Below are positions 53,159 through 60,773 of a stretch of DNA of 64,000 nt, in pieces. The notes under the pieces are model-generated. The model did not search any database, had not been told where the DNA came from, and saw only the letters and a program-made list of their open reading frames with translations. Made by a program: the position numbers and the translations under genes. The DNA is from Mycobacterium kiyosense. GTDB lineage: Bacteria > Actinomycetota > Actinomycetes > Mycobacteriales > Mycobacteriaceae. Location: NCBI GenBank assembly GCA_021654635.1, contig AP025179.1:558001-622000 (forward strand), given 5' to 3'. The first letter of the stretch is position 1. Every line of letters starts with the position of its first letter.

Positions 53159-53827
53159 ATGCGCCGACTGGTAACTCTGTTGTGTGCCTTGGGCAGTGCA
53201 CTGGTGTGCGCCGTGGGCGCGGCCGCACTCTCGGCGCCGGGGGCCGTAGCCGCCGGCAACCCGTGGTTCGCGAACTCCGTTGGCAATGCGACGCAAGTGG
53301 TTTCGGTGGTCTCCACCGGTGGATCGAACGCCAAGATGGACATCTATCAGCGCACCGCGGCCGGCTGGCAGACGCTGAAGACCGGGATTCCCACCCACGT
53401 GGGCTCGGCCGGCATGGCGCCGCAGGCCAAGAATGGTTATCCGGCCACCCCGATGGGTGTCTACAGCCTGGACTCCGCATTCGGCACCGCACCCAATCCC
53501 GGCGGCGGTCTGCCGTATACCCAAGTCGGACCCAACCATTGGTGGAGCGGCGACGACCACAGTCCCACCTTCAACACCATGCAGGTGTGTCAGAAGTCCC
53601 AGTGCCCCTTCAACACCGCGGAAAGCGAGAACCTGCAGATCCCGCAGTACAAGCACGCGGTGGTGATGGGGGTCAACAAGAACAAGGTGCCCGGCGGCGG
53701 CGCCGCATTCTTCTTCCACACCACTGACGGCGGCCCCACCGAGGGCTGCGTGGCCATCGACGACGCCACGCTGGTGTCGATCATCAAATGGCTGCGGCCC
53801 GGAGCGGTGATCGCGATCGCGAAGTAG
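53159..53827 (+). CDS. Secreted L,D-transpeptidase-like (YkuD-fold) protein (Rv0309 type)
   Basis: 222 residues, MRRLVTLLCALGSALVCAVGAAALSAPGAVAAGNPW: signal peptide with cleavage after AVAAG. The catalytic pattern H187-x9-C197-x3-D (FFFHTTDGGPTEGCVAIDD) fits the YkuD domain HxxxxxxxxxS/TxGCxxxxD. Two further Cys (VCQKSQCPF) may form a disulfide. Probably acts on peptidoglycan outside the membrane, though this subgroup is not proven to cross-link. Confidence 0.88.
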   Translation: MRRLVTLLCALGSALVCAVGAAALSAPGAVAAGNPWFANSVGNATQVVSVVSTGGSNAKMDIYQRTAAGWQTLKTGIPTHVGSAGMAPQAKNGYPATPMGVYSLDSAFGTAPNPGGGLPYTQVGPNHWWSGDDHSPTFNTMQVCQKSQCPFNTAESENLQIPQYKHAVVMGVNKNKVPGGGAAFFFHTTDGGPTEGCVAIDDATLVSIIKWLRPGAVIAIAK

Positions 53828-54568: not shown

Positions 54569-56533
54569 ATGTACGACCCGCTGGGGTTGTCGATCGGGAC
54601 CATGAACTTGGTCGCGGCGGCGAACGGAGGTTCTCCGGTCATCCGTCGTGCCGTGCTCACCCTGTATCCACACTGCGCCCCGAAACTTGTTGCATCCCAG
54701 ATGACTTCGGATGCAGCCCAGCTCGGTGTTCCGATGACCGGGTTCGTGGAACGGATCGGCGACTCCGTCGCGCTGATCTCACCCGACGGTGCCGCGCACG
54801 ATCCCGACCTGCTGACGGTCGAGGCGCTGGATGCGATGGTCGTCGCTGCGGGCGCGGACTCCAGTTCCTCGGAGATCGCGATTGCCGTTCCCGCACACTG
54901 GAAGCCGGCCACCGTGCAGGCGTTGCGCGATGCGCTTCGAACACACGTCGGCTTCGTCCGCAGCGGGATGCCGCCGCGCCTGGTCACCGACGCGACCGCG
55001 GCGTTGACCGCGGTGCGGGCCGAGACCGAGGTCCCGTCCGCAGGGGTGGTGGGCCTGCTGGACTTCGGCGGCTCCGGGACCAGTGTCACGCTGCTGGAGA
55101 TCAAGGACGTCGACGATGAGGTCGAACCACTCAGCGCCACAATGCGTTACGAGGAATTCTCGGGTAACCAGATCGACCATGAGCTGCTGCTGCACGTGTT
55201 CGAAACGGTGGGCCATCAGGACGCCGACCCGACCAGCACCGCCGCGGTCGGTCAACTCAACCGGCTGCGGATCGAGTGCCGCGAGGCCAAGGAGCGGCTG
55301 TCCGTGGACGCCGTCACCGAACTGGCGGTTGATCTTTCGGGCACCAGCACCGTCCTGCAGCTCAGCCGGGACAAGCTCGAGGACCTGATCTCCGACCGGC
55401 TGACCGGGTTCATCTACGCGTTCGACGACATGCTGGCCCGCAACCACTCCTGCTTCGCCGATCTCGCCGCCCTGGTCACCGTGGGTGGCGGGGCTAGTAT
55501 TCCGCTTGTGGCCCAGCGTCTTTCGGTGCACACCCGGTTGCCGATCCTGACCGCAACGCAGCCGGTGTGCGCCGCGGCGCAGGGTGCGTTGCTGCTGGCC
55601 GCTCGCGGTGAGCTGCTCGACCTGCGGACCCGGGCTTCGATCGGTCTGATGGCCCGCACGGCCGCCGGCATCGACGTGCTGGACCCGCCGGGGGGCGATC
55701 TGCTGGTGATCGACCACGATGCGCTCACCGATCGCGAGTTGGCCTGGTCGCAAACCGAATTCCCGGAGATCCCGACACGCTTCGAGGCCGATCCCTACCA
55801 CGAAGACGGCGCCTGCTTCTCGATGCGGCTAAACCTGATCGACCCGCCCAAGGAGCCGCCGTGGCGACGCTTCCGGGTTTCGCAGGTGCTGATCGGGCTG
55901 TGCGCCACGGTGGCCATGACCGCGATCGGAGGCGTGGCGATCACGCTGACCGCCATCGAGCAGCGGCACACCCCCACCAAGGCCCCGACCGCGCCCAGTG
56001 TGGCGCCGCCGACGTCGTTGCCCGCCGCCGTGCTGCCCACCGGCGCGCCACCCACCGCCGTGCCCCCAGCCCGATCGAACCGAGCCCGCTGCCGCCGCCG
56101 ACCGAGGTGCCCAGTGCTGCGGCGCCGACCAGAGTGGAGACGCCGCAGCCACCCCGCCGCCACCGCCGCCCCGACCCAGCAGATGACGACCACGCGACCC
56201 GCGCCACCGGTGACCACGACCCGGCCGCCGGTCGCCACGACACCGGTGACCACCCCGCCGCCGGTTGAGTCGCCCACCCCGACGGAGTCGCCGAGCGCTG
56301 CGGAGGCGCCGACCACCTCGGAGCCGTCACCGGTGCGGATGACCACCCAGTGGTTGCATGTGCCGTTGATCCCGGTCCCGATCCCGATCCAGGTGCCGGC
56401 GAATCAGGCTCCGGCGAATCAGGGCCCGGTCAACCAGTACCCACAGAATCAATACCCGCAGAACCAGTACCCGCAGAATCAGTGGCCCCAGGAGGGTCCG
56501 CAGAACCCGTTCGCCGGCGTCGGCAGTCCGTGA
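54569..56533 (+). CDS. HSP70/actin-fold membrane protein with proline-rich outer tail (Rv0312 type; compensated frameshifts)
   Basis: About 655 residues corrected, MYDPLGLSIGTMNLVAAANGG. Residues 1-430 follow the HSP70/actin fold: phosphate-1 LSIGTMN, phosphate-2 GLLDFGGSGTSVTLLEI, adenosine motif LVTVGGGASIPLVAQRL...GALLLA. One membrane segment follows (VLIGLCATVAMTAIGGVAITL), then an outer Pro/Thr-rich region and the motif QWLHVPLIPVPIPIQVP with NQYPQ repeats at the end. Three C runs (56063-56067, 56152-56155, 56169-56172) each seem to lack one C; together they restore frame, so only the proline-rich part is misread (ARSNRARCRRRPRC). Not a canonical DnaK: no substrate-binding domain. Confidence 0.85.
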   Translation: MYDPLGLSIGTMNLVAAANGGSPVIRRAVLTLYPHCAPKLVASQMTSDAAQLGVPMTGFVERIGDSVALISPDGAAHDPDLLTVEALDAMVVAAGADSSSSEIAIAVPAHWKPATVQALRDALRTHVGFVRSGMPPRLVTDATAALTAVRAETEVPSAGVVGLLDFGGSGTSVTLLEIKDVDDEVEPLSATMRYEEFSGNQIDHELLLHVFETVGHQDADPTSTAAVGQLNRLRIECREAKERLSVDAVTELAVDLSGTSTVLQLSRDKLEDLISDRLTGFIYAFDDMLARNHSCFADLAALVTVGGGASIPLVAQRLSVHTRLPILTATQPVCAAAQGALLLAARGELLDLRTRASIGLMARTAAGIDVLDPPGGDLLVIDHDALTDRELAWSQTEFPEIPTRFEADPYHEDGACFSMRLNLIDPPKEPPWRRFRVSQVLIGLCATVAMTAIGGVAITLTAIEQRHTPTKAPTAPSVAPPTSLPAAVLPTGAPPTAVPPARSNRARCRRRPRCPVLRRRPEWRRRSHPAATAAPTQQMTTTRPAPPVTTTRPPVATTPVTTPPPVESPTPTESPSAAEAPTTSEPSPVRMTTQWLHVPLIPVPIPIQVPANQAPANQGPVNQYPQNQYPQNQYPQNQWPQEGPQNPFAGVGSP

Positions 56534-56736
56534 TCTGCAGTCTGGTCCGCCGGCGGTAGCCGTTCCGTTCGAGCTGCATATGAATCTGCCGTTCCGCCCG
56601 TCGTGCGCGAGTAGGGTTTGAGCTGGCAAACTAGATAACGCCAGCTGAACCGTCGACGGTGGACCGCGCGGCACTGGGCATGCCACGACGGACCGCCTAG
56701 ACCCCGTCAATAGCTCGGACTGGGGTTGGAGGGGTT

Positions 56737-58187
56737 ATGGACATCGTGCTCGGGATATCGATGGAGCCCGCAGCGGTCCGCATGGTGCTGATCGAGGGAG
56801 CGAACGCCGACGGCGTGACGGTCGAGGACGACAGCATCGAACTGTCGTCCGGCTCCTCGGGTGCAGGCGGTGCCGTGGCAACGCAGGCGGTCGCCGCGCT
56901 GATCGGCACCCAGGAGGGCGCCGCCGAAAGTGGCTACCGGCTCACCTCGACGGGGGTGACCTGGACCGACCCCGGTCAAGTCGGCGCGCTGCGTGCCGAA
57001 CTGGCGGCCCGCGAGGTCGGCAACGTCATGCTCGTCTCGCCGCTGCTGGCCGCCGCCGCGCTGGCGCAGACCGTCGGATCGGCGCTCCATTACGCGCACC
57101 TGGCAATGCTGTTCGTGGAGGCCGAGAGCGCGACGTTGGCGGTGGTCGACGTCGCGGACGGATCCATCGTCGACTTGCATCGGCGGGCGCTGCGTTCGAG
57201 CTCGCCGGCTGCGGAGCTGGTGACGATGATCGCCGGGCTCGACGCGCCGGCATCGCGTGCCGACGGCGTGTTTCTGGTGGGATGCGGGGTGGACATCGTC
57301 GGCCTCAAGCCGGCCCTCGCGGCCGCGACGTCGTTGGTGGTCAGCGTGGCCGAGGAGCCGGAACTGGCGTTGGCTCGGGGTGCGGCGCTGGCCTCGGCGA
57401 ATGCGCCCCTGTTCGCGGCGTCGACCGCGGCGCTGGCATATGCCCTGGACCCGGGCACCGGAGAGGTGAACCCGCACGCGCTGACGCCGAGCTACCTGGA
57501 CGTCTGTGCGGCAGCCGGGGTGGCCGAAAACGCGCTGGCCTACAGCGCCGTGGACGACGACGCGTACACCACAGCCATGACGCCCGGCGCAAGCAGGCGT
57601 CGGCCGGTGGTGTTGCTGACCGGCGCCGCGGCCGGGATCGCCGCCGTGGTGGGCGGAATGCTGGTGGTGTCGCTGGCCGGAGATGTCCGACCGACCGCGG
57701 CGCAACAGCCGAACCACCCGGAATTCGTTCAGACGCCGGCGGTTCAGGCGCCTGCCACCGAGTTGCCGGCCCAGGTGTTGGGCCCGCCCCGAATTCGGTG
57801 CCGGAAGCCGCGCCGGCGGCCCCGGCGGCCCCGCCGCCGACCCCGATCGCCGCGCCCCGACCCCGGCCGCCCAGCCGGCCGCGCCGTCCCCGCCGGTGGT
57901 AGCGCAGCAACCGCCGCAGACGGTGACCAAACCGGCCCAGGCGCCGGCGAACCTGGCCCCCGCAGGCAACCCACCCGGCAGGCGCCCGCGCCCGTGCAGA
58001 CACCCGCGCCGGCGGCCGCGCCGCAGCCGTCGGCACCGCCCGCCGCACCGGCTCCGCCCGCGCCGGCGCCCGCTCCGGCAGCCCCGCCCATGACGATGTA
58101 CCTGCACTTGCCGTTCGTGTCGATCCCGATTCCGATCAACCCGCCCGCGCCGCCGGCACAGCCCCACCGCCCGCGCCGGGTCAGTGA
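56737..58187 (+). CDS. Paralogue-like HSP70-fold membrane protein, DUF7159 type (four frameshifts)
   Basis: Starts MDIVLGISMEPAAVRMVLIEG. The soluble part (about 1-280) keeps weak actin-fold landmarks: phosphate-2-like AMLFVEAESATLAVVDVAD and adenosine-like VFLVGCGVDIVGLKPALAAATSLV...ALARGAALAS. One membrane segment (PVVLLTGAAAGIAAVVGGMLVVSLA) and a Pro/Ala-rich outer part follow, ending MTMYLHLPFVSIPIPINPP. Single Cs seem missing in 57787-57790, 57855-57858, 57974-57976 and 58162-58165; correction ends the gene PAPGQ at TGA 58187 with about 484 residues. As written it would run on in frame into the next gene, which has its own ribosome site. Confidence 0.75.
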
Positions 58188-58260
58188 GGGCACTTCGTGG
58201 CGGATCCACCCGGTCGAGCGCACACTGGCAGTAACGCTTTTTGAGTTGCTAGGAGGTCGC

Positions 58261-58671
58261 GTGAGCGGCAGTGGATCTTCAGGTGGCGGGTTCGGCTTCG
58301 ACCCCGACGATTTCGACCGGGTGATCAGGGAAGGCACCGAGGGCCTGCGTGACGCGTTCGAACGGATCGGCCGGTTCGTCGGCGCGCCGGGCGCGCGGCC
58401 GGGCTGGTCGGCCATCTTCGAGGACCTCACCCGGCGACCTCGTCCGGAGCCCGAAACCACCGGCGAGGCCGGTGACGGCGTGAGGGCCATCTACACCGTC
58501 GACGCCGACGGCGGTGCCCGCGTCGAGCAGGTCTACGCCACCGAACTCGATGCGCTGCGGGCCAACAAGAACAACACCGACCCCAAACGCAAGGTGCGTT
58601 TTCTGCCGTACGGGATCGCGGTCAGCGTGCTCGACGACGTGACGGACGATTCAGCCGACACCCCCGAATAG
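58261..58671 (+). CDS. Small acidic conserved protein (Rv0313 type)
   Basis: 136 residues from GTG (SGSGSSGGGFGFDPDDFDRVIREGTEGLRDAFERIG), with AGGAGG 4 bases before it. N-terminal glycine/serine-rich start, an amphipathic helix, and the closing domain AIYTVDADGGARVEQVYATELDALRANKNNTDPKRKVRFLPYGIAVSVLDD. No signal or membrane segment, so cytosolic. Always near the HSP70-like gene in the mycobacterial order I recall, suggesting they act together. Confidence 0.82.
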   Translation: MSGSGSSGGGFGFDPDDFDRVIREGTEGLRDAFERIGRFVGAPGARPGWSAIFEDLTRRPRPEPETTGEAGDGVRAIYTVDADGGARVEQVYATELDALRANKNNTDPKRKVRFLPYGIAVSVLDDVTDDSADTPE

Positions 58672-59891: not shown

Positions 59892-60773
59892 ATGCCACAG
59901 ATGGACCGTCGCCAAATGATCATGATGGCGGGTTTCGGCGCACTGGCAGCCGCGATCCCGGCGCCGCTGGCGGGGGCCAGCCCGTCCCGACCGGCCGCGC
60001 CTTCCGGCCCAGCCCCAGTGCCGGCCGCCCCGGCCGCGGGCGCCGCGGGGTCGTTCCTATGGCATGACGAGTTCGACGGGCCGGCCGGCTCGGCGCCCGA
60101 TCCGTCGAAGTGGGCGATCTCCAATTTCCGGACACCGATCCGCAATCCGGTCGACTTCGACCAACCGCAGTTCTGGGGCCAGTACCGGGACAGCCGCCAG
60201 AACGTCTTCCTGGACGGCAACTCAAACCTGGTGCTGCGCGCCACCCGGGATCACAGCGGCACCTTCGGCGGTCTGGTACACGGCCTGTGGCGTGGCGGTG
60301 TCGGGACCACCTGGGAAGCCCGGATCAAGTTCAACTGCCTCGGCCCCGGCATGTGGCCCGCGTGGTGGCTGTCCAACGACGACCCCGGCCGCAGTGGCGA
60401 AATCGACCTCATCGAGTGGTACGGCAACGGCACCTGGCCGTCGGGCACCACGGTGCACGCCAACCCGGACGGCACCGCGTTCGAGACCCACCCGATCGGC
60501 GTGGACGGTAACTGGCACAACTGGCGGGTCCGCTGGGACGTCACCGGGATGTACTTCTGGGTCGACTACGCCGACGGCGCAGCCCCGTACTTCTCGGTGC
60601 CGGCGACCGGGATCGAGAACCTGGACGAGCCGATCCGGGAGTGGCCGTTCAACGACCCCGACTACACCGTCTTCCCGGTCCTGAACCTGGCGGTCGGCGG
60701 GTCCGGCGGCGGTGACCCGGCCGCCGGCAGTTACCCGATGGACATGCTGGTCGACTGGGTGCGCGTCTTCTAG
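59892..60773 (+). CDS. Secreted GH16 beta-1,3-glucanase (Rv0315 type)
   Basis: 293 residues. The N-terminus MPQMDRRQMIMMAGFGALAAAIPAP is a twin-arginine-like signal, followed by an Ala/Pro spacer and a GH16 laminarinase domain (FLWHDEFDGPAGSAPDPSKWAISN). Catalytic E170-I-D172-L-I-E175 (SGEIDLIEWYGNG) and substrate-cleft MWPAWWLSNDD. Hydrolyses beta-1,3-glucans outside the cell; length equals Rv0315 (about 294). Its stop codon lies in the first copy of a 21-base tandem duplication. Confidence 0.94.
   Translation: MPQMDRRQMIMMAGFGALAAAIPAPLAGASPSRPAAPSGPAPVPAAPAAGAAGSFLWHDEFDGPAGSAPDPSKWAISNFRTPIRNPVDFDQPQFWGQYRDSRQNVFLDGNSNLVLRATRDHSGTFGGLVHGLWRGGVGTTWEARIKFNCLGPGMWPAWWLSNDDPGRSGEIDLIEWYGNGTWPSGTTVHANPDGTAFETHPIGVDGNWHNWRVRWDVTGMYFWVDYADGAAPYFSVPATGIENLDEPIREWPFNDPDYTVFPVLNLAVGGSGGGDPAAGSYPMDMLVDWVRVF

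What the first reader, a model, noticed from the sequence alone, without database searches (positions are those of the whole stretch)
54569..58671. Two adjacent HSP70-fold membrane proteins with a shared outer H-P-PIPI motif, plus a small partner
Both proteins read as: cytosolic actin/HSP70-like fold, one membrane segment, proline-rich outer tail, then a near-identical end motif (WLHVPLIPVPIPI in one, YLHLPFVSIPIPI in the other). The second has a much decayed nucleotide site. Having an active-looking and a degenerate copy side by side with the Rv0313-type cytosolic protein suggests a membrane-spanning complex in which ATP state inside is coupled to an outer tail that docks on the wall or a partner. 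I know of no described system of this kind.
Basis: partly seen in the sequence, partly recalled or inferred. Interest (0 to 1): 0.7.

Follow-up and report, generated by a model that had tools for sequence, protein, structure and literature searches.

The report
Mycobacterial envelope tethers with two conserved ends
Two neighbouring mycobacterial membrane proteins, one with an Hsp70-like head and one with a worn-out relative of that head, share a short motif on the inner side and another on the outer side of the membrane, which suggests a family of envelope-spanning tethers that I found no description of.

Summary
ORF A (54569-56533): Hsp70 nucleotide-binding head, one membrane segment, Pro/Thr tail, WLHVPLIPVPIPI. 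ORF B (from 56737): DUF7159 head with a predicted actin/Hsp70-type fold and lost nucleotide motifs, one membrane segment, Pro/Ala tail, YLHLPFVSIPIPI. The core motif occurred 66 times in 3.04 million six-frame residues, by my reading only in A- or B-type tails. DUF7159 ORFs beside an A carry it in 20 of 20 cases, others in 1 of 29, that one with A cut by the contig edge.

'Headless' proteins keep [LFQ]AWS, membrane segment, linker and outer motif without an Hsp70 head; in two genomes they are the only motif carriers I found. I read this as a two-ended envelope tether with exchangeable heads. A lacks two catalytic Hsp70 residues, so 'active-looking' is too strong. The Rv0313-type gene is not a constant partner. 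What each end binds is unknown; FhaA and MtrA literature points to polar envelope growth.

The parts
54569..56533 (+). ORF A, Rv0312/MSMEG_0692-type: Hsp70-like head, LAWS motif, one membrane segment, Pro/Thr tail, outer motif, Q/N/P-rich end
   Evidence: start MYDPLGLS conserved in relatives
54569..55604 (+). A head: Hsp70 nucleotide-binding-domain fold
55739..55750 (+). A cytosolic motif LAWS
   Evidence: 44 of 44 in alignment A1; 120 of 120 relatives
55889..55957 (+). A membrane segment, basic residues on its N side
   Evidence: sequence; helix in model
56351..56389 (+). A outer motif WLHVPLIPVPIPI
56069..56171 (+). A tail stretch that differs from a close relative and reads Arg-rich: frame slips, not mended
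56737..58180 (+). ORF B: DUF7159 head, LAYS motif, one membrane segment, Pro/Ala tail, outer motif; end approximate, uncertain because of frame slips
56737..57408 (+). B head: actin/Hsp70-type fold, nucleotide motifs lost
57535..57546 (+). B cytosolic motif LAYS
57607..57678 (+). B membrane segment, preceded by RRR
   Evidence: sequence
57790..57990 (+). B tail stretch with frame slips, not mended
58099..58137 (+). B outer motif YLHLPFVSIPIPI
58251..58256 (+). AGGAGG ribosome-binding-like sequence of the Rv0313-type gene
58261..58671 (+). Rv0313-type small protein (R); linked to A and B in some species only

Best explanation
A and B are two versions of one envelope-spanning tether. Shown by sequence or model: an actin/Hsp70-fold head, an LA[WY]S motif in the low-confidence stretch before the membrane, one membrane segment with basic residues on its N side, a Pro-rich linker mostly of about 95-160 residues, and an outer [WY]LxxPxxxxPIPI motif followed by a polar or Pro-rich end. 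Inferred: LA[WY]S binds a partner of the growth machinery; the linker reaches into or through the periplasm and wall; the outer motif docks on one common partner there. The head adds nucleotide-dependent control: A probably binds ATP but is poor at hydrolysis, B probably binds none and acts as a fixed counterpart, and headless forms act as the bare tether. A and B compete for, or jointly occupy, the same two binding sites. The most likely process is polar cell-envelope growth.
For: Outer motif in 119 of 120 A and 101 of 120 B relatives; most of the 19 B misses are truncated, fused or multi-domain entries. No third motif protein found in the own genome; the five off-target hits were fetched and read. 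B carries the motif beside A in 20 of 20 cases, otherwise in 1 of 29. LA[WY]S in 120 of 120 A and 106 of 120 B against 6 hits in 1,283,632 residues of other frames, one of the six being a headless protein. Nine headless proteins, seven in alignment A3 and two more (L201, L202): all keep AWS (LAWS 5, QAWS 2, FAWS 2), a membrane segment and the YL..P..P.PIPI motif. In genomes G134 and G139 the one Hsp70-like relative found lacks both LA[WY]S and the outer motif, so the headless protein is the only motif carrier found. Linkers of similar length but different composition: A 125 +/- 8, B 135 +/- 9 in 16 pairs. M. smegmatis MSMEG_0692 (Rv0312 orthologue) was detected in FhaA complexes and not in controls, with MviN, CwsA and MSMEG_0317/PgfA (PMC11898655, section 5 read). 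Rv0312 is marked 'MtrA regulon', as are ripA and ripB (PMC11126594, passages). A YkuD L,D-transpeptidase-type gene lies upstream.
Against: No binding partner is known for either end. The FhaA data are formaldehyde crosslinks under overexpression and may be indirect. I did not verify that MSMEG_0692 itself carries the motif. Linker lengths of A and B do not covary (Spearman 0.23, p 0.39, 16 pairs), so no precise shared ruler. LA[WY]S could simply be inherited by A and B from a common ancestor. Headless genes are uncommon (3 of 60 genus genomes among the loci read). The tails were found in only part of 60 genus genomes at E 0.05 (B tail 19, A tail 34, with weak and cross hits), and the motif and LA[WY]S in none of 23 A-like loci from other genera. 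Of the longer ORFs in hand, overlapping places included, 18 of 71 B-type and 26 of 92 A-type lack LA[WY]S, the latter mostly other genera and true chaperones.
Confidence: 0.47

Rival explanations
1. The outer motif is an anchoring or threading element: a Pro-alternating hydrophobic strand that lies in, or passes through, an outer-membrane pore and exposes the polar end at the surface, rather than docking on a receptor.
For: Hydrophobic strand of about 13-18 residues with Pro at alternate places, followed by a polar Q/N/P/Y-rich end in most A and in seven headless proteins.
Against: B has only a short Pro-rich end after it, and two headless proteins end 5-6 residues after the motif. No structure of this part was predicted or found.
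Confidence: 0.19
2. A and B are parts of one hetero-complex with the Rv0313-type protein, in which ATP on A drives the outer tail.
For: Co-directional A-B-R order in 18 of 65 loci with enough upstream DNA, plus the window.
Against: R without intact A or B nearby at 38 of 65 loci, A-R without B at 7, B-R without A at 2; A-like and R co-occur in 40 of 121 family genomes, A-like alone 19, R alone 19, neither 43. A lacks catalytic residues.
Confidence: 0.12
3. The shared outer motif of B is a copy of A's tail by recombination between neighbours and says nothing about function.
For: Motif in B only beside A; A with the motif is also found without B.
Against: The wording differs consistently (A mostly MTTxW or MTTxY, B mostly xxxYL[HR]xPF) and is kept in B of species as far apart as M. 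celatum and M. gordonae, so it has been maintained since.
Confidence: 0.13

Closest known systems
Hsp70/DnaK family (PF00012), in particular the atypical Hsp70 Ssz1
   Different: No substrate-binding domain; Asp of phosphate 1 is Ser, catalytic Lys not kept; membrane segment and outer tail instead
DUF7159 (PF23717)
   Same: B is a member by Pfam score over its cut-off
   Different: Pfam gives no function; members not beside an A lack the outer motif, bar one at a contig edge
MreB/FtsA/PilM/RodZ-type cytoskeletal systems (comparison from general knowledge)
   Same: Actin-type fold working at the inner face of the membrane; MreB, FtsA and PilM are among B's structural matches
   Different: Here the head is covalently joined to the membrane segment and outer tail; no filament evidence
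TonB-type envelope connectors (comparison from general knowledge)
   Same: Single membrane segment, Pro-rich linker, outer docking element
   Different: No TonB domain in the Pfam lists for A and B, a large head on the cytosolic side; ExbB/ExbD not searched

Membership tests
Hsp70 (A) | Hsp70 nucleotide-binding-domain sequence and fold | tested here: met
Hsp70 (A) | Catalytic residues (Hsc70 D10, K71, E175, D199, T204; numbering recalled) | tested here: not met
   S for D10 in 44 of 44, K at the K71 column in 2 of 44, D for E175 in 44 of 44; D199 kept 44 of 44, T204 column T 41 and S 3 (columns set by alignment with the genome's own DnaK; counts)
Hsp70 (A) | Substrate-binding domain | tested here: not met
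   Residues 348-429 low-confidence, then membrane helix; Pfam match ends at profile 372 of 599
DUF7159 (B) | Pfam model over curated cut-off | tested here: met
   36.9 bits against 27
Actin/Hsp70/sugar-kinase superfamily (B) | Fold | tested here: met
Actin/Hsp70/sugar-kinase superfamily (B) | Nucleotide-binding motifs | tested here: not met
   No GT after phosphate 1; no DxG at phosphate 2; adenosine-side glycines 182 and 184 kept. Judged by eye, not from a bound structure
TonB-type connector | TonB C-terminal domain | tested here: inconclusive
   No Pfam TonB hit in A or B up to E 1; the tail was not folded
TonB-type connector | ExbB/ExbD motor | not tested
   No dedicated search made
FhaA/elongasome complex | Physical association | not testable with these tools
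   Only the published crosslink list for MSMEG_0692

The most novel reading that the evidence does not exclude
Mycobacteria have a modular transenvelope connector: one chassis (LA[WY]S, membrane segment, Pro-rich linker, PIPI motif) carrying an Hsp70-type, a pseudo-actin-type, or no head, through which a nucleotide-controlled cytosolic state is passed to a common receptor in the outer wall or mycomembrane at the growing pole, a functional counterpart of TonB or RodZ that was not recognised because its ends are short motifs in disordered sequence.
Probability: 0.17. Interest if true: 0.88.

Novelty: new variant of a known kind. Interest (0 to 1): 0.64.

Why it matters
How mycobacteria physically connect the cytosolic growth machinery with the distant mycomembrane is, to my knowledge, open. 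Proteins with two conserved short ends and a variable linker give named sites to test on both sides. The Rv0312-type gene is already listed among FhaA crosslink partners and in the MtrA regulon, but I found no paper that describes its architecture (searches, in an open-licence library only).

Tried and rejected
A tail-to-tail alignment test with BLOSUM62 was useless because proline matches dominate; it was replaced by information-weighted identity, where one of five pairs was not significant (44 of 500 shuffles). Correlated A/B linker lengths (a shared ruler) were sought and not found. The five off-target hits of the tail searches in the own genome were fetched and read; none has the motif. 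Rv0311, beside A in some other species, is not at this locus; a 72% homologue lies at 3.13 Mb, so it was dropped as a part. The Rv0313-type protein was considered as a subunit and judged optional. Sequence search of B against solved structures gave nothing significant. A family missing from the fold lists is not taken as evidence.

Limits. The motif counts come mostly from loci fetched as relatives, from overlapping places and related species, so the Fisher value (7e-13) overstates significance. One search used ORFs of at least 330 aa in 123 of the sequences then held; one of the 29 unlinked rows is a second reading of the same gene (L007 and L008), leaving 28 distinct. Own-genome motif searches had limited sensitivity: B's tail found A's only at E 0.11. 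Of the genus-wide tail hits I read the 24 fetched loci. Some of the 106 B hits of LA[WY]S lie at the end of the head, not in the linker. The protein searches scored only about 8000 candidates each and listed at most 120. The two B entries read as fusions with R (P0128, P0136) were not followed. One B linker value of 20 residues is probably a wrongly placed membrane segment.

This raised confidence in the tether from 0.45 to 0.47 and lowered the threading rival from 0.20 to 0.19.
Full report
What is there. The window lies at 558001-622000 of a 6.35 Mb single-contig genome; 55% of the B ORF is matched at 100% identity by a partial M. kiyosense protein. A (54569-56533) and B (from 56737) run in the same direction, 203 bases apart, followed by the Rv0313-type gene R, which has its own GTG at 58261 behind AGGAGG. 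The listed 644-aa ORF is B and R in one frame. The tails of A and B contain stretches where the reading frame slips. Relatives in other species read through, so intact copies exist. I left the sequence as it is.

Outer motif. In the 120 best relatives of each, the core motif is present in 119 A and 101 B. The 19 B misses include truncated entries, two fusions with R, four entries with other domains and one variant wording. A six-frame scan of the 161 sequences held at that point, 3,040,706 residues, gave 66 hits, all A- or B-type tails by reading. Searches of the whole own genome with the A and B tails gave no third protein with the motif; the five off-target hits were fetched and are unrelated. 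In five A/B pairs the best-scoring 16-residue window between the two tails was always the motif; shuffles reached it 1, 0, 44, 0 and 0 times of 500. DUF7159-type ORFs beside an A carry the motif in 20 of 20 cases; those not beside an A in 1 of 29 (28 distinct), and that one (L033) has the end of A at its contig edge. Among the paralogues read in six other genomes and the own genome, those other than the Rv0312-type A and its linked B end differently.

Inner motif. Every one of 120 A relatives has LAWS between head and membrane; 106 of 120 B relatives have LA[WY]S, a few of them at the end of the head. Other frames of 150 residues or more gave 6 hits in 1,283,632 residues, one of them a headless protein. 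Most A-type paralogues of the genus without the outer motif keep LAWS (exceptions read: L123, L214, L215), while 23 of 23 A-like loci from other genera lack it. B paralogues are mixed: 24 of 42 long B-type ORFs without the outer motif have it, overlapping places included. So the inner motif marks the wider mycobacterial family and the outer motif a subtype.

Headless proteins. A hit in genome G168 is a 253-265-residue ORF with LAWS, a membrane segment, a Pro/Thr linker and MTTAYLRVPFVPVPIPIKVP, with no Pfam domain and no Hsp70-like stretch in the surrounding 12 kb. The same genome has a full A elsewhere. The protein database gave six more, 241-277 residues, 50-62% identical to it. Across these seven the invariant columns gather in AWS, the membrane region and the outer motif. 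Two further ones, in G139 and G134, have FAWS and MTTEYLRIPL[VI]P[IV]PIPI, ending within a few residues of the motif, with no Hsp70-like stretch in the forward frames of the fetched locus. In these two genomes the only Hsp70-like relative found, 38% identical to A, lacks LA[WY]S and the outer motif, and no other motif carrier was listed. So the head can be lost while both ends stay. Three of 60 genus genomes have a headless gene among the loci I read.

Order and distribution. Of 80 loci fetched by R, 65 have at least about 3.9 kb upstream: 18 read A-B-R, 7 A-R, 2 B-R, and 38 have neither in intact form within the limits used. Of the 38, M. lepromatosis (L020) has fragments of A and B, and L068 has A about 5 kb away. 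In 121 family genomes, at the E-value limits used, A-like proteins occur in 59, B-like in 8 and R in 59; A-like and R share 40. Apart from one weak hit, B-like proteins were found only in the window's genus. R is therefore not a constant partner.

Linker. In 16 A/B pairs the stretch from membrane to motif is 125 +/- 8 residues in A (Pro/Thr) and 135 +/- 9 in B (Pro/Ala); in the seven headless proteins measured it is 93-113. Fully extended, 130 residues could reach about 40 nm (general knowledge), enough for the mycobacterial wall. Lengths do not covary.

Mechanism. I take A, B and the headless form as one tether type with two conserved ends. The cytosolic end probably joins the growth machinery: the M. 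smegmatis orthologue of Rv0312 was detected in at least four of five FhaA pull-downs and no control (PMC11898655, section 5 and passages read); Rv0312 is marked MtrA regulon together with ripA and ripB (PMC11126594, passages); in M. avium paratuberculosis the Rv0312 and Rv0309 orthologues stand together in the FurA table with values of -10.89 and -9.24 (PMC4319475, passage). The Rv0309-type gene upstream is a YkuD L,D-transpeptidase by Pfam. None of this names a partner for either motif. The outer end most likely docks on a wall or outer-membrane protein; threading through a pore is the main rival.

Novelty. Database names call A an Hsp70 family protein and B a DUF7159 protein of unknown function. 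In the library searched I found no description of the architecture or motifs. The library lacks most subscription papers and preprints.

Noticed in passing
L007, L008 (own genome 645.6 and 647.6 kb); L140-L141 (genome G069): Tandem DUF7159 genes downstream of a dcd-like gene; in another genome five DUF7159 genes lie within 30 kb, some with Gly-rich ends instead of the outer motif.
   Followed up: partly
L020: M. lepromatosis keeps the Rv0313-type gene but A and B only as fragments.
   Followed up: no
L097-L119: Hsp70-like membrane proteins in other genera of the family end in Gly/Val-, Pro/Ala- or Ser-rich sequence without LAWS or the outer motif.
   Followed up: partly
L160 (own genome 3.13 Mb): The Rv0311-type gene, next to A in several species, lies far away in this genome.
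   Followed up: partly
P0185, P0208, P0209, P0213: Metagenome proteins listed with both DUF7159 and ABC-ATPase domains.
   Followed up: no
L004, L008: Tails of two paralogues in the same genome also turn Arg-rich, as in A and B, which may point to indel errors in GC-rich repeats of this assembly.
   Followed up: no
53159-53824; 59892-60770: YkuD L,D-transpeptidase-type protein upstream of A, and a glycosyl hydrolase family 16 protein downstream.
   Followed up: partly
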